From NCBI GenBank assembly GCA_017512885.1, contig JAFWEP010000005.1, forward strand, positions 1-62,519: a stretch of DNA of 62,519 bases. Direction: 5' to 3'. Both the position numbers and the translations under genes were made by a program. The notes under the pieces were generated by a model that saw only the letters and a program-made list of their open reading frames with translations, searched no databases and was not told the DNA's origin. Of this stretch, positions 23,197-40,767 are shown piece after piece (position 1 is the first letter of the stretch; the number at the start of each line of letters is the position of its first letter). This DNA is from Erysipelotrichaceae bacterium (GTDB lineage Bacteria > Bacillota_I > Bacilli_A > Erysipelotrichales > Erysipelotrichaceae).

Positions 23197-24498
23197 TTAC
23201 TTCCCTTCCTCAGGCCGTTCCGTCCGGTCACGGACAGAGATCACTTCAGCCCCCTGCAGGGCGATCTTCCCCCAGTTGCGGTGATCCCAGTCCAGTTCCC
23301 CTGCCGTACGCTTCCGGCGTACCTGAAAGGACAGCCCGGGAACGTTCTCGATGTTCAGGTTGCTGCCAAGTTCATCCCGCACAAAGAAGTTATAGACCGT
23401 GATATAGGTACCGTCGGAAAACTCCCTGAGCGGATATTCCACGGTGATCTCTCTTCTTTCGTCTTTTCTTAGATCCGCCAGATCATACAGGATAAAAGTC
23501 CCTGTCGGTTCATCGAAAGGATCGCGTACTTCGATACGCAAAGACACGCCTTGAATGTCTGCTGCTGCAGAACAGTCCAGCACCAGCCGTATCTTCTCGT
23601 CATGGAAGAAGGAGGAACGTTCTTCGGCAAAATGCGCCGAATGCAGGAAAAGAGGCTGTTCCTTCAGCCAGGAAGGACGGGCGATATCACTGTAGTCGAT
23701 CGTTGTTTCTTCCCGTACCTGCTGATGCAGATAGATCCGGATCGCTTCCTCGGGATCACCGTCGAAGACGATGCGGCCCTGATCCAGGACGATGCAGCGG
23801 GTGCAGAGCTTGCGGATCTGCTGCATATTGTGGCTGACACAGAGGACGGTCCGGCCCTGTAAGGAGGAAGCCTCTTTCATATAGCGGATACACTTGTTCT
23901 GGAAGTCGTTGTCTCCGACCGCCAGGACCTCATCCACGATGATGATCTCGCTGTTCAGATTTGCCGTGACCGAGAAGCCCAGTTTCATATACATGCCGCT
24001 GGAGTAACGTTTGACCGGAGTGTCGATGAATTCGCGCAGTCCGGAGAATTCGATGATGTCTTCGATCTTCTCATCGATCTCTTCCTTCCGCATGCCTAAG
24101 AGGGTCCCGTTAAAGTAGATGTTCTCCCGGCCGGTCAGTTCTCCGTCGAAACCGGTCCCCACTTCCAGCATGGTCGTGACTCTGCCGGCGATATCGATAG
24201 TGCCTGTCGTAGGAGCGGTGATCCGCGAGATCAGCTTCAGCAGGGTGCTCTTCCCGGCTCCGTTGGCCCCGATGATGCCGACCGCTTCTCCGGCATGAAC
24301 GGTCAGATCGATATCCTGCAGGGCATAGAAAAGATCGCCGTAAGTGCCCTTGCTGCCGATCTTGCGGTTGGGATCTTCCTTTCCTCTTTTTCTGGCCCAC
24401 CAGCTCTGCAGTTCCCGCTGCAGGGTCGTGGAATTGATCTGTCCGATCCGGTAACGCTTGCTGACGCCGCGGACAGCGATCATCGTATCTTTTTCCAT
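23197..24498 (-). CDS. ABC transporter ATPase of Wzt type, with a C-terminal extra domain
   Basis: This 433-residue protein has an ABC domain (about 1-250) with Walker A IIGANGAGKSTLL (about 77-89), signature YSSGMYMKLGFS (about 163-174) and Walker B IIIVDEVLAVGD (about 181-192). Residues about 275-420 form an extra beta-rich domain, as in Wzt and TagH-like proteins. In Wzt from O9a-type systems the extra domain binds the modified non-reducing end of the glycan and so couples chain termination to export. It is one base from the permease gene. The methyltransferase/kinase-like/LicD fusion encoded four genes upstream is a candidate maker of such an end group. Confidence 0.92.
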   Translation of the reverse strand: MEKDTMIAVRGVSKRYRIGQINSTTLQRELQSWWARKRGKEDPNRKIGSKGTYGDLFYALQDIDLTVHAGEAVGIIGANGAGKSTLLKLISRITAPTTGTIDIAGRVTTMLEVGTGFDGELTGRENIYFNGTLLGMRKEEIDEKIEDIIEFSGLREFIDTPVKRYSSGMYMKLGFSVTANLNSEIIIVDEVLAVGDNDFQNKCIRYMKEASSLQGRTVLCVSHNMQQIRKLCTRCIVLDQGRIVFDGDPEEAIRIYLHQQVREETTIDYSDIARPSWLKEQPLFLHSAHFAEERSSFFHDEKIRLVLDCSAAADIQGVSLRIEVRDPFDEPTGTFILYDLADLRKDERREITVEYPLREFSDGTYITVYNFFVRDELGSNLNIENVPGLSFQVRRKRTAGELDWDHRNWGKIALQGAEVISVRDRTERPEEGK

Positions 24499-24499
24499 A

Positions 24500-25354
24500 T
24501 CACACCGTATCCATGAAGGATCGTTCGATCCGGTTAAAACAGTAGAGACCGCCGAACAGGATCAGGACCGTGAGGATCAGTGAATAAGCGATCATGCCCA
24601 CAGACACTTCTCCGACCCCGAACAGCAGATAACGGAAACATTCCATTACCGGGGTGACCGGGTTCAGAAGTACCAGGGTATAGGCCAGTCCCTGCGGCAC
24701 TTCGCTCAGCGGATAGACCACCGGGGTCGCATACATCCAGAAGCGGACGAACAGACTGACCAGCAGACTGAGATCGCGGTATTTGGCTGTCGCACTGGAG
24801 ACGATGACCCCGACGCCCAGGCCCAATGCCGCCAGCCACAGCAGCAACCCAAAAGACAGCAGCAGTCCGCCCCAGCGGATGCTGAAGGTACCGGTCAGAG
24901 CGAAATACAATGCACACAGCAGGAAAGGGATCAGCTGGATCGCATACTCGACAGTCGCGATCAGGGTATTGGCGATCGGGATGGAGAGACGGGGGAACCA
25001 TACCTTTCCGAACAGATAGGCGTTGGCTGAGAAGGTCACCGAACAGCTGGTGATGATCGCAGCCAGAAAGTTCCAGATCCCGTGTCCGGATAAATAGAAA
25101 AGCAGACGAGGGATCCCGTTCGTACCGATCCCGGCGATCACACCGAAGACGAAGAGGTTCATCAGGGCATTGATCAGCGGATTGATCAGCAGCCAGAGCG
25201 GGCCCAATATGGTCTGCTTATAACGTTTCAGAAAGTAAGACTGCGTATAAGACACGACAAAATCCCGGTAACGCCAGACGTCACCCAGATGCAGATCCAG
25301 AAGATCAGGTTTCGCATCGATATGCACATGCCGGGGATCCTGTTTTTCGTTCAT
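24500..25354 (-). CDS. ABC-2 type polysaccharide export permease (Wzm/TagG type)
   Basis: This 284-residue protein has six membrane helices and the family motif QSYFLKRYKQTILGPLWLLI split over QSYFLKRYKQ and TILGPLWLLINP (about 38-60), typical of polysaccharide and teichoic-acid exporters. With the ATPase downstream it would move a lipid-linked glycan across the membrane. It lies between the UDP-glucuronate decarboxylase gene (2-base gap) and the ATPase gene (1-base gap). No Wzx flippase is present in the window, so export here is ABC-dependent. Confidence 0.93.
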   Translation of the reverse strand: MNEKQDPRHVHIDAKPDLLDLHLGDVWRYRDFVVSYTQSYFLKRYKQTILGPLWLLINPLINALMNLFVFGVIAGIGTNGIPRLLFYLSGHGIWNFLAAIITSCSVTFSANAYLFGKVWFPRLSIPIANTLIATVEYAIQLIPFLLCALYFALTGTFSIRWGGLLLSFGLLLWLAALGLGVGVIVSSATAKYRDLSLLVSLFVRFWMYATPVVYPLSEVPQGLAYTLVLLNPVTPVMECFRYLLFGVGEVSVGMIAYSLILTVLILFGGLYCFNRIERSFMDTV

Positions 25355-25356
25355 GT

Positions 25357-26283
25357 TCAGAGGCTCCGTTCCCGGAAATAGGCGATCGTTTTCCGCAATC
25401 CCTCTTCCAGAGAAGTATGGGGCGCCCAGTTCAGTTTTTCCTTAGCCAGAGAGATATCCGGCTTGCGACGGACCGGATCATCAGCCGGAAGGCCCCGGTA
25501 AACGATCCTGGAGGAAGAACCGGTCAGACGGATGATCATCTCTGCCAGCTGAGCGATGGTCCTTTCATCCGGGTTGCCGATATTGACCGGACCTGTATAG
25601 TCCTGTTCCATCATCTTCATCAGTCCTTCGACCGTATCGTCGACATAGCAGAAAGAACGGGTCTGTGAACCATCCCCATAGATCGTGATATCCTTCCCCT
25701 GCAGGGCTTCCACGATGAAGTTGGAAACAACCCGGCCGTCATTCTCCGCCATATAGGGACCATAGGTATTGAAGATGCGTACAACCCGGATATCGACCCC
25801 GTACTGCCGGTGGTAATCAAAGAAGAGCGTCTCACTCATCCGTTTGCCTTCGTCATAGCAGGAACGCAGACCGATCGTATTGACGTTGCCCCAGTAGGAT
25901 TCTTTCTGAGGATGGACGAGAGGATCGCCGTAGATCTCACTGGTGCTGGTCTGCAGGATGCGGCAGTGATTCTTCCTGGCCAGTTCCAACATATTGATCG
26001 CTCCCAGCACACTGGTACGGGCCGTCTTGACCGGATCTTTCTGGTAATGCACCGGACTGGCCGGACAGGCCAGGTTATAGATGCGGTCTACCTCCAGGTC
26101 GAGAGGTTCTTCGATGTCTCTTTCCAGAAAATGAAAACGGCTGTTCTCTTCCAGATCAGCGATATTCGCTCTGGCGCTGGAATAAAAGATGTCCAGACAG
26201 TATACCTCGTCTCCCTGCTGCAGCAGTCTGCGGCAGAGATGAGAACCTATGAATCCGGCTCCGCCGGTGATCAGTACCTTCAT
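25357..26283 (-). CDS. UDP-glucuronate decarboxylase (UDP-xylose synthase) type SDR
   Basis: This 308-residue extended SDR has NAD-binding [12 protein letters not shown] (about 6-17) and catalytic SCYDEGKR (about 148-155, Tyr and Lys). [12 protein letters not shown] (about 71-82) and [20 protein letters not shown] (around 117-136) are hallmarks of UDP-xylose synthases rather than of RmlB or GalE. It should make UDP-xylose from UDP-glucuronate. No UDP-glucose dehydrogenase is encoded in the window. The ATG has GAGGTAACGA before it. Confidence 0.88.
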
Positions 26284-26286
26284 TCG

Positions 26287-26712
26287 TTACCTCGTATTTC
26301 TGATCTTATTGACGATCTTCGTCGTGCTCTGTGTTTCGGTATAGGGAAAGAAGACGATATCCGAGCCCTTTTTGCGCAGTTCTTCTCTTTCCTTCAGCCA
26401 GTATTCGTTATGTTCGTAGTCGTTCCCGGAAAAGAAACAGTCGAAGGGACGGCGTTCGTATTCCACCAGTCGGGAAGGTGTATCACGGATGATCACCACT
26501 TCATCGACTTCTCTTATTGCTTCCAGGATCTCTTTCCGCTCTTCGGCCGGGATATAGGGATCATGACCTTTGAACTTACGTACGAGACTGTCGGAAAGGA
26601 TCGCGACACGCAGATACCTGCAGCGGGACTTCGCATTCCGGATCAGCTTCAGATGACCGACATGAAACAGATCGAAGACACCCATCAGCAGCCCGGTATT
26701 CACTTTTTCCAT
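26287..26712 (-). CDS. TagD-like cytidylyltransferase
   Basis: This 141-residue protein is a nucleotidyltransferase of the HxGH family. GVFDLFHVGHLKLIRNA (about 11-27) holds the HxGH motif and TETQSTTKIV near the end replaces the RTEGISTT motif of TagD. TagD makes CDP-glycerol from CTP and glycerol 3-phosphate; relatives activate ethanolamine phosphate or related groups, so the substrate is open. The product could feed one of the LicD domains encoded nearby. It overlaps the upstream fusion gene by 13 bases. Ribosome site AAGGGG. Confidence 0.85.
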   Translation of the reverse strand: MEKVNTGLLMGVFDLFHVGHLKLIRNAKSRCRYLRVAILSDSLVRKFKGHDPYIPAEERKEILEAIREVDEVVIIRDTPSRLVEYERRPFDCFFSGNDYEHNEYWLKEREELRKKGSDIVFFPYTETQSTTKIVNKIRNTR

Positions 26713-29057
26713 ATATCCCCTTTCTGATCATCCACTTTGAAGACCAGATCCGTGTGTTTCCGCTGACGCACGCGCGGAAGAGCGAGATAGTTCCCGCCAA
26801 AGCGCGCTTTCAGCCACTCATGGTAGTTTTTCGGGACTATGATCTGCATATCTTCAAACGGAAGCTCTTCCGTTTCCTGCAGATCCCGGTCATCATAGAT
26901 ATTCCGGTTCTCGCCCTCGCCGTAGTAACAGCAGAGCAGAGAACGCCGTGATGAGTGCTTTACGCTGTGAAACAGCCGGTCCAGCCAATAGAAAAGCAGT
27001 CGGTACGGAAGAAGTTTCCCAAAGAAATAATACTTTATAAGTGCAGTTTGCTTCAAGTCAGACAGTACGGCAGCCGTATGATCATAAGAGCGGGCATAGA
27101 TACAGCGCTGTACCGTACGGATCTGTTTCTGCAATGTCTGAAATCCCTCTTCCGTTTCCGGACAGTAGTCCAGAGGCAGGATATCGATCGCGATCCCCCG
27201 ATGGACCGTCAGCGGAAGATTGTGTCTTTCGATCCCGAGGGAGTGTTCATCCCGCAGTTTGGCATAACCTCCGTAGAAGATCTTTCCGTCCCTTCCGACA
27301 TACTGCAGAAAGGGCACGCCCTTCCCTTTCGGATAGATCTGCAGGAGACGGTCAAAGTCTTCCCGGGGCATCGCCAGATCCAGATCATCATCCCAGGGGA
27401 TGAATCCATGATGGCGGACCGCTCCCAGCAGGGTCCCGTGGATCGCCAGGTAACACAGTCCGTTCTCCCGGCAGAAAGCGTCAAAGTATTTCAGCAGCTG
27501 AAGCTGTACCGCATGGACCTTCTCCAGCAGCGGATCTCTTTCCTGCAGGCGCCGCCGGTTCTCTTCGATACGTTCTTTTCCTATATATGTCCAGTCATTG
27601 AATCGCCGGTAGAGATCAAAGCGGCGGTTCTCCGCAACGAAACGGTCATCGACCTCCTGATATACCTTACGCAGACCTTCGGAAAGTTCGTATCTTGCCC
27701 AAAGCCGGGAAGCCGCTCCATCAAAAGAACGGCCGAAATGAAGATGGGTATAGCGGATCGCACGATACATGACGAAACCGGCCGGGCAGTCTTTCCAGGC
27801 GAATTCCTGATCGTAGTAGAGATTCGTTTCCCCCTGCAGGAAGGCATTGTAGGGGATCATATCGATAAAGGCTTCCTGCAGCAGCAGCCCGTAGTCTTCC
27901 CGCGGCGGCCAGCGCTCAGGATCCGCTTCGGCAGCCGGCTCTGAGGATCTCCGGATGTCCTGAAAGAAGCGGTCAAACACAGCGAAGATGATCTCCTCTT
28001 TCCCTTCCGACAGCGCTTTTCCAATGACTTCCAGCGTCCCCGGAGAAGTGATGCGCGGCATCCGCAGGATCCCTTCTGACAGCTCCTGGGGCACGACAGC
28101 GATCCCTCGCTTCTGTAAAGCCTGCGCATTCTCCTCTGTTTTCTGCAGAAAGGTCAGACCGGAGGGATGCAGCGCCTTTTTGTATACGCAGTCCTTCTCA
28201 AAGACCGTCAGAAAGGAGCGTTCTCCGCGGTCCGGAGACAGGATCACTCTTTCGATCGGACAGCGCTCGGGATCATCGCTCAGGAAGACCAGGTAGAAAT
28301 CGCTCTGGCGGAGCAGTGTTCCTTCAGCGATCGCTCTTTCATATTCCTCGTTCTCATTGCGGATCAATGGACTGTGAAAAGGATCATATACCCGGACCCG
28401 GTCGGCAAAAGAAGTCTGTGGCGGAGAGTCGCTGCGGTAGACCGCCTGTGTGAAGGCAAAGTCAGGGAACGGACAGTAGATCTGTTCATTCGTGAAGATC
28501 TTCGCTGCCTCGTGAAACTGCGTCAATGTCAGCAGCTTCTCGGTCGCAAACGGCTCTCTGACCCGTTCATCCAACGCTCCGCAGCTGTACTTCAGGCCGT
28601 TCCGGCTGCGGAAACCGGTGACCAGAGTGCCCTTTTCCTTCAGGTGTTCCCTGCAGAACTTCAACAGCCGGCCGGCATCTTCATACAGCCCGTCATGATC
28701 GATCAGAAAGATATAATCGTATCTTCCCTGCACTTCGCTCAGCGATCCCAGCATCTCTGCCTGCGGGAAACGTTCCTGCAGTACGGCCGCTTTCTGCGGG
28801 TCTTCTTCCAGCAGCGTGACTTCGCGGAAGGTCTTCAGAAACAGACCGCTCAAAGCGCCATATCCGCTGCCGATCTCCAGTGCGGAGGCTTCTTTGCGGA
28901 ACGGCCGCCAGCAGAGCAGCGCATGCCGCAAAGAGCTCAGCGCAAAATGAACGCCTGCCTCTTCTTCGGCGATGAGCGCATCATAGTCAATGTCGCCGTG
29001 CCGATGCACAAGATCTCTGATCACCTGATGATCATATCGTCTGTCCGGTCCAGTCAT
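26700..29057 (-). CDS. Methyltransferase / kinase-like / LicD fusion protein
   Basis: This 785-residue cytoplasmic protein has three parts. (1) A class I SAM methyltransferase at about 35-190, with ALEIGSGYGALSGLF near 59-73. (2) A middle region (about 265-475) that looks like an APH- or WbdD-type kinase: VYKKAL near 290 resembles the ATP-binding Lys strand, and FIDMIPYNAF followed by YYDQEF (about 395-420) resembles the catalytic loop and Mg-binding DxE segment. (3) A LicD phosphotransferase (about 520-760) with GTLLGAVRHHGFIPWDDDLD near 540-560, including the metal-binding Asp cluster. LicD enzymes move phospho-choline or similar groups from a CDP carrier to a sugar. Parts 1 and 3 are clear; the kinase reading is inference. 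Its position four genes from wzt suggests capping of the glycan end. Confidence 0.8.
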   Translation of the reverse strand: MTGPDRRYDHQVIRDLVHRHGDIDYDALIAEEEAGVHFALSSLRHALLCWRPFRKEASALEIGSGYGALSGLFLKTFREVTLLEEDPQKAAVLQERFPQAEMLGSLSEVQGRYDYIFLIDHDGLYEDAGRLLKFCREHLKEKGTLVTGFRSRNGLKYSCGALDERVREPFATEKLLTLTQFHEAAKIFTNEQIYCPFPDFAFTQAVYRSDSPPQTSFADRVRVYDPFHSPLIRNENEEYERAIAEGTLLRQSDFYLVFLSDDPERCPIERVILSPDRGERSFLTVFEKDCVYKKALHPSGLTFLQKTEENAQALQKRGIAVVPQELSEGILRMPRITSPGTLEVIGKALSEGKEEIIFAVFDRFFQDIRRSSEPAAEADPERWPPREDYGLLLQEAFIDMIPYNAFLQGETNLYYDQEFAWKDCPAGFVMYRAIRYTHLHFGRSFDGAASRLWARYELSEGLRKVYQEVDDRFVAENRRFDLYRRFNDWTYIGKERIEENRRRLQERDPLLEKVHAVQLQLLKYFDAFCRENGLCYLAIHGTLLGAVRHHGFIPWDDDLDLAMPREDFDRLLQIYPKGKGVPFLQYVGRDGKIFYGGYAKLRDEHSLGIERHNLPLTVHRGIAIDILPLDYCPETEEGFQTLQKQIRTVQRCIYARSYDHTAAVLSDLKQTALIKYYFFGKLLPYRLLFYWLDRLFHSVKHSSRRSLLCCYYGEGENRNIYDDRDLQETEELPFEDMQIIVPKNYHEWLKARFGGNYLALPRVRQRKHTDLVFKVDDQKGDIWKK

Positions 29058-31530
29058 CGAATCCTCTTTCCTTTAAGATCCCGTGGATCCCCTCTGCGCT
29101 GTACATCGCTGCCGCCAGAGCCGGATCGATCTCCGTCCCCGGCCGGTAGAACCGTTCCAGGAAAACCGTCACCAGTTTCCGGACCTCTTCCTGTACGACA
29201 GCGATCCTTTCCAGATCCGACGCATGTCGGACTTCTTCCGCAAACAGCGGAAGACCGTCTTCCGTAAATCCGGTCAGAGACGGTTCCGGGGAAGTCATGA
29301 TGTATTCCATCTCCATATAATGAGCAGTAAAGAATCTTTCTTCCGAAGAAAGATAATAGTCAATGTTTTCGAAGGCATCTCCGTAATAAGGCCGGGCAAA
29401 GAAATAACCTTTCAGAGAGAAGCCGGAGGACTTCCGCAGGAAGTGCAGCGTGGTACCTACCGAGACAAAATCAATGAAGATATACTCCTTCTCTGCCGAG
29501 ATCCCTTCCTTCTCCATGTAGCGAAGGGTATTCGCCCGGCAGCGTTTCGCTCTTTCCGTGATCTCGGGCCAGTGCTGAAGGATATAGTCTTCTCTGCTGA
29601 TCTGCGGATCGCTCAGCGGACGAGGCTCGGCGATCCCGTAGACGTTCCTCAAATAAGCCGGCAATGCCTGTTCTTTGCCCCGATAAGTCTCGGAGATCGT
29701 CTCCGGATCATCCATACAAGCCTGAAAGGAAGCGCGGCGGCTGGTATACAGGTAGGATCCCGGCGGACAGTCCGCATGCAGGCGCAGCCGATCATACAGT
29801 TCTTTTAACAGCCAGCCGTCCCGGGCTGCAAAGAGCACGCCGTCCTTCGCAGCAGCCGTCCCGGGCAGTTCACAGAGGAACCCCGTGATCAGCGGCGTGC
29901 AGGCCATCGCCGCAAAACGCAGCAGACGCCGGCGATCATCCAGGAAGCGGATCCCATCCTCTTCAAAAGGATCTGCGAAAGCCTCACTCAGGCAGAGACC
30001 CAGCAGACTGCGTTCCCGAAGATCCCACTCTTTGGCAAGGACGTCCCCGTAACCGCAGTCGACAGCTCTCTGGAGGGCTGAGCGCAGGTGCAGAGCTTCG
30101 CATCCCGCTTTGCGGGCTGCTGCGATATCCGCCTCCGGATCATCTCCGATATGCAGGATCTTTTTCCCGGGGTATTCCTTCTTTACGATCTCAAAGAGTC
30201 CCTGGGACTTGCTGCAGCGACAGTCGACAGAGACGAAGATCTTTTCATAGCCCTGGATGCCGCATGTCTCGAGAAGCTCAGCGATCTCTTCTGCTTTGAG
30301 ATACATGTCTGAAGTCAGGATGACGGTCTTCTTCTTTTTCTTTGCGTATTCCAGCAGTTCCGCGATCCGTTCCCGCGGCTGCAGGAAACGCTTCTCGCAG
30401 GCAAGTTCTTTTTCCGGCAGATCCGCCAGTGCAGACGGATCCCGATCCAGGAAAGCAGCGGTACGGGCATAGATCTCCGGGAGCGATGGATGTTCCCCGC
30501 TGCGCTCCGCCCGGATCCGTGCCTGCCGGAAACGTTCCGCACTGACCCCCAGCTTCTCCTGCACTTCCTCTGCCAGCCAGCCGATGACATCCTGCGGCTG
30601 CAGCACACAGCGCTGCAGCAGGGTATCGAAGACATCGAAAGAGATCACTTCACAGCTGTCGATCAGACGGCAGGCATCCGCAAACTGCAGTCTTTCCTGT
30701 GTATCTTTCTCCTGGCGATAATTCTGTATGATCGTATCCAGCGAAGCGGTCACGGAATAATAGAGACGGACCGTATGGATCCCGTAATACCGCGGGAGCA
30801 GGAATTCATTGACAAAGCCTTCCCCGAAATAGAGGACCTTCTCTCCAAGGGCAGCCGCTTTGCGGAAGGAAAGATCTTCCCCCTTCCGTTCAAACACGAA
30901 GACAGAATCTTTTTCTGCCCGGATCCCCTGAGCTTCCAGAGCTGCCAGCTGCTGCTGAGAGTCAAAGGATTTCCGCAGACTGAAGAAGATCTTCTTCCCG
31001 CTCTTCCGGGCTTTTTCGTAAAGATCCCATACCAGCCGGTTCGGCCGGCCGATCTCTCTGTTCCCCACACCGCGCATCGCAAAGAATGTATTCATCACTT
31101 CGAAACCGATGACATCACATTCCTCGATCAGGTCCTGACATGTCTGCGGATCTTCCGGAAAACTCTGTTCATAATCCCGGCGGACTTCCGTTTCATCGAC
31201 GCCGTACATATTCAGGAGAGGGATCTGCAGCTCTCTGCAGAGATCGCAGAGATCCTCATAAGCTTTTACCTCGTGACGCACTCTTTCGGTCAGGATGATC
31301 AGATCCGGCCGCAGATCAGGAAGGTCCTCCCTGACATAGACCCGTTTCCCGCAGAACTCTTTTCCGATCTCCGGATCGAGCGTCATGATTCCCTGAAAGC
31401 GAAATCCTTCATCGTACTCCTTCACGATCTCTCCCGCGTATTCACGGGTCCCATGCAAAAGGATCTTCCTGCCTTTCCAGGAAGCGAAGTGTTCAGGGAA
31501 TCTATCGATCACATAGGCAAGCTCTGACAT
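29032..31530 (-). CDS. HAD-family protein with N-terminal Rossmann-like domain (COG5610 type)
   Basis: This 832-residue protein begins with a Rossmann-like segment (GRKILLHGTREYAGEIVKEY, about 20-39), then a region of unknown fold, a HAD domain (about 290-500) with motif I ISFDVFDTLL, motif II ILTSDMYL and motif III/IV HIGDDPEADI, and a C-terminal part (about 535-830) with VLFAARDGWLLKELYD and FIDFVSVGTTLHFLRKSS as seen in predicted HAD hydrolases of polysaccharide loci. It may act on a sugar phosphate or a glycan phosphate; the substrate is unknown. The start at 31530 is preceded by GGAGGAAAG and is preferred over 31566, which overlaps the upstream gene. It overlaps the next gene by 26 bases. 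Confidence 0.78.
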   Translation of the reverse strand: MSELAYVIDRFPEHFASWKGRKILLHGTREYAGEIVKEYDEGFRFQGIMTLDPEIGKEFCGKRVYVREDLPDLRPDLIILTERVRHEVKAYEDLCDLCRELQIPLLNMYGVDETEVRRDYEQSFPEDPQTCQDLIEECDVIGFEVMNTFFAMRGVGNREIGRPNRLVWDLYEKARKSGKKIFFSLRKSFDSQQQLAALEAQGIRAEKDSVFVFERKGEDLSFRKAAALGEKVLYFGEGFVNEFLLPRYYGIHTVRLYYSVTASLDTIIQNYRQEKDTQERLQFADACRLIDSCEVISFDVFDTLLQRCVLQPQDVIGWLAEEVQEKLGVSAERFRQARIRAERSGEHPSLPEIYARTAAFLDRDPSALADLPEKELACEKRFLQPRERIAELLEYAKKKKKTVILTSDMYLKAEEIAELLETCGIQGYEKIFVSVDCRCSKSQGLFEIVKKEYPGKKILHIGDDPEADIAAARKAGCEALHLRSALQRAVDCGYGDVLAKEWDLRERSLLGLCLSEAFADPFEEDGIRFLDDRRRLLRFAAMACTPLITGFLCELPGTAAAKDGVLFAARDGWLLKELYDRLRLHADCPPGSYLYTSRRASFQACMDDPETISETYRGKEQALPAYLRNVYGIAEPRPLSDPQISREDYILQHWPEITERAKRCRANTLRYMEKEGISAEKEYIFIDFVSVGTTLHFLRKSSGFSLKGYFFARPYYGDAFENIDYYLSSEERFFTAHYMEMEYIMTSPEPSLTGFTEDGLPLFAEEVRHASDLERIAVVQEEVRKLVTVFLERFYRPGTEIDPALAAAMYSAEGIHGILKERGFDDWTGQTI

Positions 31531-31547
31531 CTTTCCTCCATACGCTC

Positions 31548-32792
31548 TCAGGAACGTCGGCGGCAATAGGACCAGTGCACGCCTTTTTCTGCCAGAAGCG
31601 GCTCGATCTCCGACAGGAGGCCTTCCCGCATGGCCACGATCACAAAGTCCTCATCTGTCAGATTTACCTCCGAAAACTCTTTTACCGGACGTCCGCAGAC
31701 GATCTCGGCACTTCCGTCCTTTTTCGTTACAAGGAAACCTTCCAGACAGATATCGCTCTGGGCAAAGATCTTGCCGGCAAAACGTCTGCCGACGATCCCG
31801 GCGCCGTAGATGTAGAGCCTTTTGTGAGAGCGGATCTGTTCCAGGATCTGCGGATCGATGCGTTCGACGAAGCTCTTCGCCCGGATATGGGCATCAAAAC
31901 ATTCATACAGCACCCGGTCCTGCGCACGCTGACTGCAGTAAGCCCGCAGCTCTTCTTCCGGCAGCTGAGCATAAAGTGAATAGGCACGTTCATACATATG
32001 TCCGATACACATCTCACTGCCGTAAGTATGCAGGCCTCTTTCGTTCACGAAACGGCACATCCTGTAGAAGTTGATCAGATAGCCATGGAAGTTCTTTGGT
32101 GCCGGCTTACTGGTCATGACCGAATTGGGACGGATACGCAGGATAAAATACTGCTTCGGCAGATACAGCGCCCGCCGGGCTGCCATGATCCCGGCAAACG
32201 CAAAAAACTCATCTTCATGTTCCGACCCTTCCGGATTCAGGATCCCTTCTTCCTTGATGAACTGACTGCGCCAGAAGATGCGCTGCGGGTAACAGGTCCA
32301 TTCCAGCTGCTTCTGAAAAGCATCCAGCAGTTCTGTTCCCTTGACGGCATGCCGGGGATACTGTCCCCTGCGGTCCTGGAAAGGCGGCATATAGACTTCC
32401 CGCAGTTTCTCATCGTCATAGACGGTCCGGGCGTCAAAGAAGACGGCATCGGCATCTTCCTCTTTTGCGCTCTTGCAGAGTTCCTCCAGGGCATGGGGTT
32501 CGATCATATCATCCGAATCCAGAAAGTACAGATACTCTCCGGAAGATCTTTCGATCCCCCGATTGCGTCCGTATCCCTGACGATGATTCTCCGGCAGGTG
32601 GATGACCTTCACCCGGCTGTCCCGCTGTGCATATTCGTCCAGGATCTTTCCGCAGTTATCCGGTGAAGCATCATCGATACAGATGACTTCGATATCCCGG
32701 AGCGTCTGCGAAAGAACACTGTTCAGGCATTCCGGAAGGTACTTCTCCGTGTTATAGACAGGGATGATGACAGAGACTAACGGCATATTCAT
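31548..32792 (-). CDS. GT2 glycosyltransferase with C-terminal Rossmann-like domain
   Basis: This 414-residue protein has a GT2 GT-A domain (about 1-230) with VSVIIPVYNTEKYLPECLNS, ICIDDASPDN and the metal motif FLDSDDMIEPHA. The C-terminal part (about 305-414) has KRLYIYGAGIVGRRFAGKI, a small nucleotide-binding-like domain also found at the N-terminus of several neighbours. It adds a sugar to the growing chain in the cytoplasm. ATGA overlap with the previous stop starts it at 32792; a second ATG at 32786 is better placed for the AGGAG and is equally possible. Confidence 0.9.
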   Translation of the reverse strand: MNMPLVSVIIPVYNTEKYLPECLNSVLSQTLRDIEVICIDDASPDNCGKILDEYAQRDSRVKVIHLPENHRQGYGRNRGIERSSGEYLYFLDSDDMIEPHALEELCKSAKEEDADAVFFDARTVYDDEKLREVYMPPFQDRRGQYPRHAVKGTELLDAFQKQLEWTCYPQRIFWRSQFIKEEGILNPEGSEHEDEFFAFAGIMAARRALYLPKQYFILRIRPNSVMTSKPAPKNFHGYLINFYRMCRFVNERGLHTYGSEMCIGHMYERAYSLYAQLPEEELRAYCSQRAQDRVLYECFDAHIRAKSFVERIDPQILEQIRSHKRLYIYGAGIVGRRFAGKIFAQSDICLEGFLVTKKDGSAEIVCGRPVKEFSEVNLTDEDFVIVAMREGLLSEIEPLLAEKGVHWSYCRRRS

Positions 32793-36575: not shown

Positions 36576-37345
36576 CTCTTTTTACACTCCTTCAGATAAG
36601 CGATCTCCTGTTCGCTGATGCCCTGAGCGCGCAGGAAATGTTCCGGCAGACGGTTCCTTTCGTCAAACAGTTCCTCATAGATCCCGGAACGCGGGTAGAT
36701 CACCGTCTGCACTTCCGGGATTGTGCACCAGGCAGCGACTGCCAGCCGGTGCAGTCCGTCGATGACCCGCAGATCCTCATCCAGGACGAGCGGACGGCGG
36801 GGATCGAGACCGTGCACTTCTGCCTCCTGTAACAGCTTTTCCAGAGCCAAGAGACGCTTCTCAGCCGTTTCCCGGGAACTGTGCAGAGCCATAGTGCGTA
36901 CATACAGCTCCTTCTTTGCCGGATCGTTCTCTTTGATCCCGGCGATTCCGGCATAACGCACGGCAATCCAGTACTGATCCTCCGGCTGTCTCTGCCGGAT
37001 CTGAGCGGTACGGAGCAGCTCCTGACGAAGAGGTGCTCCGAAGAGCCAGTCCTTCAGGAAGGGATAGACCCGGATCATCCGGACGCTCTGCGGAAGAGAA
37101 GCGAGATTGCCGTCGTGTACGGCCAGCAGGATCGGCAGTCCCCTGCTTTCCGCTTCCTGCAGGGGCAGGACCGGGTAAGTGTGAAAGCTCTCCCCGGCTT
37201 TCGCTTCGCTGCGGCAGAAGAACCGCAGATGTTCGAGGGCTTTTTGTTTCTCCAGAGCCTTCAGCAGCATCCCGGCCACATAACCGGTGCCGAAGACGGC
37301 GTAGTCCTGCTCCTGCAGCATCTTCAGGATCTCGTTCGGATTCAT
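36566..37345 (-). CDS. Rossmann-like/ParB-like fusion protein of unknown function
   Basis: This 259-residue protein starts with a small Rossmann-like domain (YAVFGTGYVAGMLLKALEKQ, about 15-34). Near residues 175-210 it has RPLVLDEDLRVIDGLHRLAV and AWCTIPEVQTVIYP, the core pattern of the ParB/sulfiredoxin fold (VIDGxHRL). ParB-fold proteins include CTPases and kinases such as SerK, so a nucleotide-dependent phosphate transfer to a small molecule is possible, which would suit a locus rich in CTP-using and LicD enzymes. DNA partitioning is unlikely here. It overlaps its neighbours by 10 and 4 bases. Confidence 0.65.
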   Translation of the reverse strand: MNPNEILKMLQEQDYAVFGTGYVAGMLLKALEKQKALEHLRFFCRSEAKAGESFHTYPVLPLQEAESRGLPILLAVHDGNLASLPQSVRMIRVYPFLKDWLFGAPLRQELLRTAQIRQRQPEDQYWIAVRYAGIAGIKENDPAKKELYVRTMALHSSRETAEKRLLALEKLLQEAEVHGLDPRRPLVLDEDLRVIDGLHRLAVAAWCTIPEVQTVIYPRSGIYEELFDERNRLPEHFLRAQGISEQEIAYLKECKKRCG

Positions 37346-38157
37346 GGTTCCTCCGGCAGCCGTAAGGCAGAAACGGGATGGGTCTTGCGCTGTTCCGCAG
37401 GCGGCAAGGTCATATAGTCGCCGAACTTAAAGCGGAGATAGTTGTCATAATCTGCGATCCCGGGAAAGGAGATCCCTTCAAAGGAGATCTCTTTCCGTCC
37501 GGTATACCAGCGGCGCAGATAGCCGTACTCCCGGTTCGGCGTCGGAAACATCAGGATCCGCACCCAGTCCGACTTCGTCTCTTTTGCTTTGCGGATCATC
37601 TTTTCATAATGTCCGAAGATCCATCGGTCCGGGATACGTTCCAGCAGACTGTAGATGCCGCGTTTCAGTCTGTTCTTATCCGCTCTCTTTCCCACCGGCG
37701 CATACAGCATCTTCCTTACCAGGAAACATTCAAAGTTCTTTACCGTTCTTCCCAGACAGCTCTGCGGTACGGCATCCAGGGGAAAGACATCGATGAAGAT
37801 TCCCTGCTCATAGGACATTTCTTCCTGGTGTTCCCGTAAGAAGAGGCTGTCCCGGCGGCGCAGTTTGCCGTAGCCCCAGCGGTAGCCGGGGGTGACCCGG
37901 TGATCCTGGAAATAGAAATCACTTCCCAGATCTTCCTGACAGGCCTTTACGAAGCGCTCGTAATCCTCTCTCAGCAAAGCGATATCCGCATCATCATCCC
38001 AGGGGATGAAACCGCCGTGCCTTACCGCTCCTAAGAGCGTTCCGGCAATGATCACATAGGGGATCTGATGCCTGCGGCAGATGCGGTCGGCTTCCTGCAG
38101 CAGTCCGAGCTGTACGAGCTGGATCTTCCTCAGGGTCTTCTGATCGTAACGGATCAT
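37342..38157 (-). CDS. LicD-family phosphotransferase
   Basis: This 271-residue protein is a stand-alone LicD enzyme. QLVQLGLLQEADRICRRHQI leads into AGTLLGAVRHGGFIPWDDDA (about 38-57) and DIALLREDYERF, with the Asp cluster that binds metal; GIFIDVFPLDAVPQS follows (about 117-131). It would transfer a phospho-group, for example choline, glycerol or ribitol phosphate, from a CDP donor to a sugar. The start at 38157 overlaps the preceding TGA (ATGA) and has GGGGAGG upstream, so I prefer it to the longer frame. Confidence 0.92.
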   Translation of the reverse strand: MIRYDQKTLRKIQLVQLGLLQEADRICRRHQIPYVIIAGTLLGAVRHGGFIPWDDDADIALLREDYERFVKACQEDLGSDFYFQDHRVTPGYRWGYGKLRRRDSLFLREHQEEMSYEQGIFIDVFPLDAVPQSCLGRTVKNFECFLVRKMLYAPVGKRADKNRLKRGIYSLLERIPDRWIFGHYEKMIRKAKETKSDWVRILMFPTPNREYGYLRRWYTGRKEISFEGISFPGIADYDNYLRFKFGDYMTLPPAEQRKTHPVSALRLPEEP

Positions 38158-39419
38158 ACTTCGCGGTCCTCCCCGGCTCCGTAACGCAGGAAGAGCACTT
38201 TCTCTTTCTTCACCAGCAATACATCGAAACATTCCTGAGAAGCGGTATCCGGTTCCCGCAGCGGTGTACAGGTCCCGGCCGGTTTGTGATCCTGAAAGTC
38301 TTCGGGCTTGTTGGAGGCGATGCCGACGATCGGGAAGGAGCGCTTTGTATAGACGCTGTCAGCATGGTTGTGGCCGTGGATATAGGCCAGGATATCGTGA
38401 TGGCGTTTCTGATGCCTCTCCAGCACTTTCAGCAGCAGTTCGCTGTGAAAGATCTCCGGGTCCCAGTAATGCAGCTCTCCGAGCGGAGGCACATGAGAGA
38501 AGACCAGCAGGCGATGTCCCTGCGGCTTGCCGAGCAGCAGCCGGCAGAGGCGAAGGATTGTCGGCAGCGAAAAGCCATAGCGGTGCTTCCGTTTCGGATC
38601 GAAGGAAGACAGGAACAGGAGGGACAGTTTCTGCTGCGGCAGATCGATACGCCGGTCTTCCCTCTCTCCGTTCAGGTAGAGCTCTTCGTTCTCCTTCCTG
38701 CTGAAGACATCTTTGTTCCCCCGGAAGTAATTGCCGTCATGATTGCCGATGCAGAGGTATACAGGCAGACCGCTCTCCTTTAATCCGTCGAGGACCCGCT
38801 GTGCCATCTCCCGGCTGACGGCCGAAGACTGGGCGCCGTCGCTCAGATCCCCCAGATGGATCAGGGCCTGAGGATGGATCTCTTTGGCCAGTTCCTTCAG
38901 ATTTATGACCGTATCCGGAAAGGCGCAGCCGTAACCGTAATGCGTATCGCTCAAGAGCAGCAGGCAGGTGTCCCCTTCTTCTTTCTGCTGAGCGTAACGC
39001 TGCAGCAGACGCTGCTGTTCTTCCTGAAACCAGGGCTTCTGTTCCGGGACTTCCTCTGTTTCCTGCGGAAAGCGCACGAGCCGGTCGATCCTTTCTTCCG
39101 GAGAACCGAAGAAGACCAGACGGATATAGCCGTCCCGGGGAGCCTGCCACTCCCGCACCTCTTCAAATACGGACAGAGCGGGATCGTAGAGAGTGTAATT
39201 GCTGTAGGGGTCGTAGGTATAGGTATGGATCAGTTCCGGACGGATCTGCGGCAGATAGAAGTACAGACGAAAAGGACGATCGGAAGAGACCGTCTCTCCT
39301 TCATGGATATAGATCGGTTCGAAGGTCACGGACTGCAGCGGGTCATGCTGGAGCGATCCGTTCTCTCTGTCGACCGACTTTCCTTTCAGCAGGAACTGCC
39401 GTCTGGCCGGATCACTCAT
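38154..39419 (-). CDS. Calcineurin-like metallophosphoesterase with an N-terminal beta domain
   Basis: This 421-residue protein has about 130 N-terminal residues that look like a small beta domain (LRFYLPQIRPELIHTYTY style strands) and then the five metallophosphoesterase blocks: LSDTHYGYG (about 150), HLGDLSDG (about 186), CIGNHDGN (about 225), FSHVPP (about 304) and IHGHNHADS (about 349). It hydrolyses a phosphate ester with a two-metal centre. No signal peptide is seen, so it acts in the cytoplasm, possibly on a phosphodiester substituent or a CDP-linked intermediate. It overlaps the fusion gene upstream by 8 bases. Confidence 0.88.
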   Translation of the reverse strand: MSDPARRQFLLKGKSVDRENGSLQHDPLQSVTFEPIYIHEGETVSSDRPFRLYFYLPQIRPELIHTYTYDPYSNYTLYDPALSVFEEVREWQAPRDGYIRLVFFGSPEERIDRLVRFPQETEEVPEQKPWFQEEQQRLLQRYAQQKEEGDTCLLLLSDTHYGYGCAFPDTVINLKELAKEIHPQALIHLGDLSDGAQSSAVSREMAQRVLDGLKESGLPVYLCIGNHDGNYFRGNKDVFSRKENEELYLNGEREDRRIDLPQQKLSLLFLSSFDPKRKHRYGFSLPTILRLCRLLLGKPQGHRLLVFSHVPPLGELHYWDPEIFHSELLLKVLERHQKRHHDILAYIHGHNHADSVYTKRSFPIVGIASNKPEDFQDHKPAGTCTPLREPDTASQECFDVLLVKKEKVLFLRYGAGEDREV

Positions 39420-40767
39420 TTCCTCTCAGTCCTTCCCGATAGGCCAGATACTGTTCAAAGATCCCGGCCATCGTGATCGATTCTTCTCTGGTCAGATGAT
39501 AATCGGAAGTATGCCAGCCCTGCAGCCGGTCAACGAGCTCTGCGATCTCATAGCGCAGCCCTTCTCCGGCATAATCCACATGGAAGGAAGTGATATCCTG
39601 CGGATCTTCGCGGTGGATCGCAAACTCCGAGGTCTTCCACCAGGGGGAGCTGACCCGGATATAGCCTTCCGTACCGGCGATCAGCAGCTCTCCTTCGCTC
39701 TTGACGCCCAGCCCGGTCTTGCCGCAGGAAAGCATCCTGCCGTTGCTGATATAGGTCTTGGTGTAGAGGTCGATACCGTTCTCGTCCAGCAGGCTTTCAA
39801 AGCGGATGTCGAGATCTTTCGTACCCAGGATCTTCAATACCGGCAGCAGGGTATAGGAAGCCAGTTCGGTAAAGGAACCTCCGTGATCGCGGTCTCTTCG
39901 CTCCCGCAGCTGCGGATCCGTCAGCTTGGTGAAGGCGCATTCCACATCCTTCACTTCCCCGATGAAGCCGCTCTCCACGATCGACAGGAGCCGGCTGAAT
40001 CCGGGACAGTAGGCAGTCTTGACAGCCTCCATCAGGATCAGGGATCTCTCTTCCGCCAGGGCGTAAAGCTCTTCGGCTTCCGATCTACGCATAGCCAGCG
40101 GCTTCTCACAGAGCACATGTTTCCCCGCCAGCAGCGCTTCTTTCGCATAGGCATAGTGCGTCTCATGCGGGGAAGCGATATAGACGCAGTCGCTCTTTTC
40201 CAGCAGTTCCGGATAGCTCTCCGCTGCCTGCAGATCAGGATATCCTTCCGCCAGTCTGCGAGCGCTCTCCAAATGAGGATTATAGATCTCCCGGACATGG
40301 ACACCGCCGTGCACATGATCGATCTCCTGCAGGAAACGGCGTACGATCCGTCCGCTGCTGACGATCCCGAAGGAGATCGAAGGATAGGGAGCGGTGCGCA
40401 GCGAGGAAGAAGAGATGCCCGGGGTACGGGGCAGATAGACGACCTCGCACCACTTTTTCAGATAATCGAACTTCCCTTTCCAGTCATCACCGATGACGAA
40501 GACGTCGGCCCGGTATTTCTGGATATCCTCTACTTTCTGTCCGTAATGATCCTCCAGGATCACTTCATCGACATAAGGGCAGTTGCGGACATTGGCCATC
40601 CGGATATCGAGACTGTCGGCCAGCAGCAGCTTGCCGCGCTGTCTCGTGAATTCGTTGGATGTCACGCCGACGATCAGCCGGTCGCCGAGGGCTCTGGCCC
40701 GTTTTAAAAGATTCTCATGACCTTCATGAAAAAGATCGAATACGCCGTAAGTGATCACTGTCTTCAT
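39412..40767 (-). CDS. Cytidylyltransferase / Gfo-Idh-MocA oxidoreductase fusion
   Basis: The 451-residue protein joins two complete enzymes. Residues about 1-125 are a TagD-type cytidylyltransferase with TYGVFDLFHEGHENLLKRA (HxGH motif) and LPRTPGISSSSL near the end, the counterpart of RTEGISTT. Residues about 130-451 are an NAD(P)-dependent oxidoreductase of the Gfo/Idh/MocA family with SFGIVSSGRIVRRFLQEI and the catalytic-loop CEKPLAMRRSEAEELY. The pair could make and activate an alcohol phosphate, the way a ribulose 5-phosphate reductase works with a ribitol 5-phosphate cytidylyltransferase. The oxidoreductase family here differs from TarJ, so the substrate is open. Confidence 0.88.
   Translation of the reverse strand: MKTVITYGVFDLFHEGHENLLKRARALGDRLIVGVTSNEFTRQRGKLLLADSLDIRMANVRNCPYVDEVILEDHYGQKVEDIQKYRADVFVIGDDWKGKFDYLKKWCEVVYLPRTPGISSSSLRTAPYPSISFGIVSSGRIVRRFLQEIDHVHGGVHVREIYNPHLESARRLAEGYPDLQAAESYPELLEKSDCVYIASPHETHYAYAKEALLAGKHVLCEKPLAMRRSEAEELYALAEERSLILMEAVKTAYCPGFSRLLSIVESGFIGEVKDVECAFTKLTDPQLRERRDRDHGGSFTELASYTLLPVLKILGTKDLDIRFESLLDENGIDLYTKTYISNGRMLSCGKTGLGVKSEGELLIAGTEGYIRVSSPWWKTSEFAIHREDPQDITSFHVDYAGEGLRYEIAELVDRLQGWHTSDYHLTREESITMAGIFEQYLAYREGLRGNE

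What the first reader, a model, noticed from the sequence alone, without database searches (positions are those of the whole stretch)
26700..29057. Methyltransferase / kinase-like / LicD fusion beside Wzt-Wzm: a possible Gram-positive chain terminator
The sequence shows a SAM methyltransferase motif, a middle region with a strand holding a Lys (VYKKAL), a catalytic-loop-like FIDMIPYNAF and a YYDQEF segment, and then a complete LicD domain. WbdD of O9a-type systems also joins a methyltransferase to a kinase; it caps the glycan and the Wzt C-terminal domain reads the cap. Here a Wzt-like ATPase with an extra C-terminal domain is encoded four genes away. LicD in place of the WbdD coiled coil would be a new way of ending and tagging a chain. 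The kinase call and the role are inference.
Basis: partly seen in the sequence, partly recalled or inferred. Interest (0 to 1): 0.85.

Follow-up and report, generated by a model that had tools for sequence, protein, structure and literature searches.

The report
Sugar-chain capping enzyme fused to LicD
A gut bacterium encodes one protein that joins a methyltransferase, an antibiotic-kinase-like kinase and a LicD phosphotransferase beside a sugar-chain exporter; it is a new, LicD-carrying relative of the enzymes that put a methyl-phosphate end cap on bacterial surface sugars, though whether it acts on the chain end or on the group that LicD adds is still open.

Summary
ORF 26700-29057(-), 785 aa, has an intact SAM-methyltransferase motif, a middle domain and a complete LicD domain (Pfam 1e-40). 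The kinase guess is right in fold: the middle domain, modelled alone, matches APH kinases (APH(3')-Ia Z 15.4). It carries K293, D399..N404 and D416 in the kinase pattern. Its nearest characterised relative is not WbdD but the methyltransferase-kinase terminator of Klebsiella pneumoniae O7 (PMC11231755). Relatives with that layout sit beside wzm-wzt in other Bacilli, Citrobacter and Pseudomonas. The window protein is a LicD-carrying branch of that family (clade support 100/100). The exporter is four genes away, and its Wzt C-terminal domain is a divergent Wzt_C. The coiled-coil ruler and CBM are absent. The exporter link is real but loose: 8 of 14 genomes, and the Anaerovibrio relative lies beside flagellin genes with no exporter found. 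The tightest partner is the next gene, a cytidylyltransferase (10 of 11 carrier genomes, 0 of 59 others). So two mechanisms compete: a methyl-phosphate end cap, or a Lic/Type A-like pathway in which the kinase makes the phospho-group that LicD transfers. Partly supported; new variant of a known kind.

The parts
26700..29057 (-). methyltransferase-kinase-LicD fusion, 785 aa
28428..29057 (-). N-terminal SAM methyltransferase domain, about residues 1-210; motif E61-x-G63-x-G65-x-G67
27618..28340 (-). APH-like kinase domain, about residues 240-480
28179..28181 (-). codon of K293, the strand lysine (VYKKAL)
27846..27863 (-). catalytic-loop residues D399-N404 (DMIPYN)
27810..27812 (-). codon of D416 (YYDQEF), metal-site aspartate position
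26748..27536 (-). LicD domain, residues 508-770, FKRP-like; PWDDDLD motif intact
26287..26712 (-). CTP_transf_like cytidylyltransferase, the strictest genomic partner of the methyltransferase-kinase
29032..31566 (-). 844-aa protein with HAD domain, immediately upstream and overlapping; second strictest partner
25357..26283 (-). SDR-type nucleotide-sugar epimerase/dehydratase
24500..25354 (-). Wzm, ABC-2 permease of the glycan exporter
23197..24498 (-). Wzt, ATPase of the glycan exporter
23200..23715 (-). Wzt C-terminal domain, divergent Wzt_C (PF14524 found in 8 of 10 aligned relatives, not in the window copy itself)

Best explanation
The protein is a LicD-carrying branch of the O7-type methyltransferase-kinase terminator family. 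Most likely the kinase domain uses ATP to phosphorylate a hydroxyl at the non-reducing end of a lipid-linked glycan (either a sugar or the group that LicD has just added) and the methyltransferase domain methylates that phosphate. LicD adds a phospho-group from the CDP donor made by the neighbouring cytidylyltransferase. The finished end is then read by the C-terminal domain of Wzt and the chain is exported by Wzm/Wzt. Shown here: domains, folds, kinase motif, homology to terminators, gene neighbourhood. Inferred: substrates, order of steps, methyl-phosphate product, cap reading.
For: Middle domain modelled alone has the APH kinase fold: APH(3')-Ia Z 15.4, rmsd 3.2, 192 residues; amicoumacin kinase Z 12.2, the best structural match reported for the O7 terminator kinase (PMC11231755). 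Full model: WbdD is Foldseek rank 2 (E 5.6e-9, 556 columns), spanning both domains. The kinase profile matches O7-type Bacilli proteins at 99.2%, E 2e-19, and those match the proteobacterial ones at 94.5%, E 7e-8; controls stay at or below 0.3%. O7-type relatives directly follow wzm-wzt in G105, G733, Citrobacter and Pseudomonas. The fusion shares a locus with Wzm/Wzt in G000, G003, G205, G164 and G218. The Wzt C-terminal domain is class A (35-60% identity) in seven of the genomes that carry the methyltransferase-kinase, but unrelated (17%) in G164, whose methyltransferase has lost its SAM motif. LicD models on FKRP, Z 18.2.
Against: Five genomes of the genus (G191, G221, G227, G632, G265) show no matching exporter, and the Anaerovibrio copy sits beside three flagellin genes without one. 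The strictest partner is the cytidylyltransferase, not the exporter, and one genome fuses the kinase directly to it. Direct profile match to the two proteobacterial terminators alone is weak (E 0.0015, probability 17%). No coiled-coil ruler or CBM lies between kinase and LicD. No biochemistry was done.
Confidence: 0.42

Rival explanations
1. Lic/Type A-like donor pathway. The kinase phosphorylates a small molecule X (as LicA does with choline), the neighbouring cytidylyltransferase makes CDP-X, the methyltransferase methylates X, and LicD transfers phospho-X to a glycan. The product is a decoration, not a chain-stopping cap, and the exporter is only incidental.
For: Orthologous cytidylyltransferase (52% identity or more) occurs in 10 of 11 carrier genomes and 0 of 59 others, p 3e-11. 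In G265 the kinase C-terminus is fused directly to that cytidylyltransferase. The Anaerovibrio fusion plus cytidylyltransferase lies directly before three flagellins with no exporter found. C. difficile Type A and P. aeruginosa b-type flagellin glycans are made by a similar gene set: HAD, nucleotidyltransferase, methyltransferase, phosphotransferase (PMC10714395, PMC11833859). Choline kinase LicA is among the Foldseek matches.
Against: The methyltransferase-kinase pair is homologous to glycan terminators that have no cytidylyltransferase beside them and act on sugar chains (PMC11231755). The nucleotidyltransferase of the Type A pathway is of a different family, GDP-mannose pyrophosphorylase-like (PMC10714395). 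TagD-type cytidylyltransferases can take phospho-alditols from central metabolism without a kinase (general knowledge).
Confidence: 0.36
2. The three activities decorate residues along the chain or a short flagellin or wall glycan, with phosphate and methyl groups added internally and no role in ending or exporting the chain. The co-location with Wzm/Wzt only reflects that all are glycan genes.
For: The locus encodes three LicD proteins and two cytidylyltransferases, so phosphodiester decoration is abundant. No coiled-coil ruler is present. Genomes without a matching exporter exist.
Against: The Wzt C-terminal domain class follows the presence of the methyltransferase-kinase (5 of 7 class-A genomes of the genus carry it, against 6 of 63 others; p 7e-4), and related two-domain proteins directly follow wzm-wzt.
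Confidence: 0.14
3. The kinase domain is an inactive scaffold that positions the methyltransferase and LicD.
For: The glycine-rich loop and helix-C glutamate of protein kinases are not recognisable by eye in the alignment; D399 is E in Anaerovibrio.
Against: K293, N404 and D416 are invariant, and D399 nearly so, in alignments A2 and A7 that include distant relatives; the kinase is kept even where the methyltransferase motif or LicD is lost.
Confidence: 0.06

Closest known systems
Klebsiella pneumoniae O7 ORF6 N-terminal terminator (PMC11231755)
   Same: N-terminal SAM methyltransferase followed by an APH-like kinase that gives no Pfam or PDB sequence match; partner of a Wzm/Wzt exporter; amicoumacin kinase among the structural matches.
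   Different: O7 ORF6 continues with a CBM, a coiled coil and two GT2 modules; here LicD follows directly. Cytidylyltransferase and HAD partners are specific to the LicD branch. The ORF6 sequence itself was not available here; a Pseudomonas protein of the same layout was used.
WbdD of E. coli O9a (PMC3482155; PDB 4azs)
   Same: Methyltransferase then kinase in one chain; Foldseek rank 2 over both domains.
   Different: The paper describes the WbdD kinase as Src/ROCK-like; ours ranks with APH kinases. WbdD has a coiled coil; ours has none.
WsaE of Geobacillus stearothermophilus (PMC2943079)
   Same: Gram-positive multidomain protein with an N-terminal methyltransferase, fused to a chain-building enzyme, beside wzm-wzt; proposed to end the chain with a methyl cap that Wzt binds.
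   Different: WsaE carries two rhamnosyltransferase domains and makes a 2-O-methyl cap; no kinase or LicD is reported.
LicD / FKRP phosphotransferases
   Same: The C-terminal domain matches LicD (1e-40) and models on FKRP, a CDP-ribitol-dependent enzyme (Z 18.2).
   Different: Here it is the last third of a methyltransferase-kinase protein.
C. difficile Type A / P. aeruginosa b-type flagellin glycan pathway (PMC10714395, PMC11833859)
   Same: HAD protein, nucleotidyltransferase, methyltransferase and phosphotransferase encoded together; the Anaerovibrio relative lies beside flagellin genes.
   Different: Separate or differently fused proteins, different nucleotidyltransferase and transferase families, no APH-like kinase reported.

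Membership tests
O7 ORF6-type methyltransferase-kinase terminator | SAM methyltransferase domain followed by a homologous APH-like kinase domain in one chain | tested here: met
O7 ORF6-type methyltransferase-kinase terminator | catalytic aspartate in the kinase (D441 in O7) | tested here: met
   D399 aligns with the aspartate of the same motif in the Citrobacter and Pseudomonas proteins; alignment with O7 D441 itself not tested
O7 ORF6-type methyltransferase-kinase terminator | CBM and coiled-coil ruler after the kinase | tested here: not met
   the model has only short helices between kinase and LicD
O7 ORF6-type methyltransferase-kinase terminator | encoded with a Wzm/Wzt exporter that has a C-terminal domain on Wzt | tested here: met
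   met in the window and in 8 of 14 carrier genomes; not found in 6
O7 ORF6-type methyltransferase-kinase terminator | adds methyl-phosphate to the chain end | not testable with these tools
   needs biochemistry
WbdD | C-terminal coiled coil after the kinase | tested here: not met
   no long helix between kinase and LicD in the model
WbdD | WbdD-like (Src/ROCK-like) kinase domain | tested here: inconclusive
   two-domain similarity to WbdD; the lone domain ranks with APH enzymes, and WbdD not being among the rows shown proves nothing
LicD (PF04991) | full-length LicD profile and metal-binding DDD motif | tested here: met
   E 1e-40 over positions 1-227; PWDDDLD; FKRP Z 18.2
Wzt_C (PF14524) for the exporter ATPase | Wzt_C profile match of the C-terminal domain | tested here: inconclusive
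   8 of 10 members of the domain alignment match, best 1.2e-4; the window copy does not
Lic-1 / Type A donor pathway | small-molecule kinase, cytidylyltransferase and phosphotransferase acting in sequence | tested here: inconclusive
   the three gene functions are present and co-inherited; substrates unknown

The most novel reading that the evidence does not exclude
A trifunctional terminator: LicD attaches a CDP-derived phospho-group to the chain end, the fused kinase phosphorylates that group, the fused methyltransferase methylates the phosphate, and a matching Wzt C-terminal domain reads the compound cap. It would be a new cap chemistry made by one protein, with no coiled-coil ruler, and portable to flagellin glycans.
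Probability: 0.22. Interest if true: 0.75.

Novelty: new variant of a known kind. Interest (0 to 1): 0.52.

Why it matters
Methyl-phosphate terminators coupled to Wzm/Wzt are documented in Gram-negative O antigens. The data here place the same methyltransferase-kinase family beside wzm-wzt in Bacilli, and show a branch that swaps ruler and polymerase modules for a LicD phosphotransferase with its own cytidylyltransferase. That makes a testable case for how Gram-positive glycans are ended and selected for export, and for how a capping module was re-used in flagellin glycosylation.

Tried and rejected
Sequence searches of the middle domain against Pfam and the PDB gave no kinase; only modelling and fold comparison did. 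A PDB search with the Wzt C-terminal domain profile gave only chance ferritin hits. WbdD as the direct family was set aside because there is no coiled coil and the kinase ranks with APH enzymes; WbdD is absent from the 50 rows shown, which by itself proves nothing. 'The fusion is exporter-specific' was rejected by the Anaerovibrio flagellin locus and by carrier genomes without a matching exporter. The full-length fold search was filled by methyltransferases, so the middle domain was modelled alone. No literature on a methyltransferase-LicD protein with Wzt was found in the held library.

Full report
What is there. The ORF at 26700-29057(-) encodes 785 aa. It overlaps the gene before it and is followed by cytidylyltransferase, SDR, Wzm and Wzt genes on the same strand. 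The organism belongs to the family of Erysipelotrichaceae/Solobacterium genomes: the same-genus species G003 carries the same gene at 54% identity and corresponds to a record titled Erysipelotrichaceae.

Methyltransferase. Residues 58-70 read SALEIGSGYGALS. The single sequence gives only weak Pfam hits, but the family profile finds methyltransferases at E 2.5e-12 and the model aligns with them at Z 13-14. Two relatives have lost the motif: L117 in G164 and L118 in G221.

Kinase. No sequence library recognises residues 240-480, just as PMC11231755 reports for the O7 terminator kinase. AlphaFold gives the full protein pLDDT 90.1 and the domain alone 81.6, with a well-modelled core. The lone domain matches APH(3')-Ia at Z 15.4, rmsd 3.2 over 192 residues, and amicoumacin kinase at Z 12.2; the listed rows are kinases of this superfamily. 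The expected residues are present: K293 on a strand, D399-x4-N404, then D416 twelve residues later. K293, N404 and D416 are invariant in A2 and A7; D399 is nearly so. In the wider alignment with the two proteobacterial proteins, N404 stays invariant, D416 is nearly so, and K293 is no longer listed.

LicD. Pfam LicD covers residues 529-754 at 1e-40, the metal motif PWDDDLD is intact, and the structural match is FKRP, a CDP-ribitol-dependent phosphotransferase, at Z 18.2.

Relatives. A search with an Erysipelotrichaceae relative (L120) found plasmid proteins in Citrobacter braakii (methyltransferase-kinase-coiled coil) and Pseudomonas asturiensis (methyltransferase-kinase-Ig-like-coiled coil-GT2-GT2, the layout described for O7 ORF6). 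Both lie directly after wzm-wzt; domain assignments beyond the annotated ones are my reading of the sequence. Profile comparison links the LicD branch to the Bacilli O7-type proteins (99.2%, E 2e-19) and those to the proteobacterial ones (94.5%, E 7e-8); the direct step is weak (E 0.0015), with controls at or below 0.3%. A tree puts all LicD-branch proteins, Anaerovibrio included, in one clade with support 100/100. Members without LicD (L115/L116, L185/L186) nest inside it, so LicD was probably fused early and lost later (midpoint root, few rows).

Exporter. Wzt C-terminal domains vary far more than the ATPase part. A 'class A' domain, 35-60% identical to the window's, occurs in the window, G003, G205, G218, G245, G159, G634 and G287; the first seven carry the methyltransferase-kinase. 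A truncated Wzt in G282 was counted as class A from its partial domain. PF14524 recognises 8 of 10 aligned members. Of 14 carrier genomes, 8 have a Wzm/Wzt of this kind. Six have it in the same locus: same contig in G000, G003, G205 and G164, a 141-base exact contig overlap in G218, and a 93% dovetail in G159. In the 70-genome genus the association is significant (p 7e-4) but not strict, and the genomes are related and fragmented, so p-values are only a guide. G164, whose methyltransferase motif is gone, has an unrelated Wzt domain (17%), which fits cap reading but is one case.

Stricter partners. The neighbouring cytidylyltransferase has an orthologue (52% identity or more) in 10 of 11 carrier genomes and in none of 59 others (p 3e-11). 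The HAD-containing 844-aa protein is in 9 of 11 against 2 of 59. In G265 the kinase C-terminus runs straight into the cytidylyltransferase in one frame. In Anaerovibrio the fusion and cytidylyltransferase lie directly before three flagellin genes, with no Wzm/Wzt found in that genome.

Weighing. Homology and synteny of the two-domain core favour a glycan-end kinase plus phosphate methyltransferase. The cytidylyltransferase link and the flagellin locus favour a Lic/Type A-like route in which the kinase feeds the CDP donor. A compound model, in which the kinase and methyltransferase act on the group that LicD adds, accommodates both. I give the cap model (including the compound form) 0.42 and the donor-pathway model 0.36.

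Noticed in passing
L024:7530-21723: In an Anaerovibrio MAG the fusion and cytidylyltransferase sit directly before three flagellin genes and after AMP-binding, LuxE, LuxC, SDR and transketolase genes: a flagellin glycosylation setting. The start of the fusion ORF there is uncertain.
   Followed up: partly
L190:2-682: In G265 the kinase C-terminus is fused in frame to the cytidylyltransferase without LicD; the contig begins inside the gene.
   Followed up: partly
L245:8923-10872 and L246:8935-13308: O7-type methyltransferase-kinase terminators beside wzm-wzt on plasmids of Citrobacter braakii and Pseudomonas asturiensis; annotated only as methyltransferase or glycosyltransferase.
   Followed up: partly
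window 39412-40767, 38154-39419, 37342-38232: Cytidylyltransferase-GFO/IDH/MocA fusion, metallophosphoesterase and LicD in a row, kept together in relatives: looks like a second CDP-donor and transfer module.
   Followed up: no
window 29032-31566: 844-aa protein with a central HAD domain that nearly always accompanies the methyltransferase-kinase; function of its N- and C-terminal parts unknown.
   Followed up: partly
L117:10446-12698 and L118:6947-9232: Methyltransferase domains that have lost the SAM-binding glycine motif while kinase and LicD motifs stay intact.
   Followed up: partly
L115:3126-4544: Cytidylyltransferase fused to DUF1919 beside a LicD-less methyltransferase-kinase; DUF1919 may stand in for LicD as the transferase.
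   Followed up: no
L231, L232, L237-L242: Wzt ATPase domains 64-71% identical to the window's but C-terminal domains down to 13%: strong domain diversification of a Gram-positive Wzt family across loci.
   Followed up: partly
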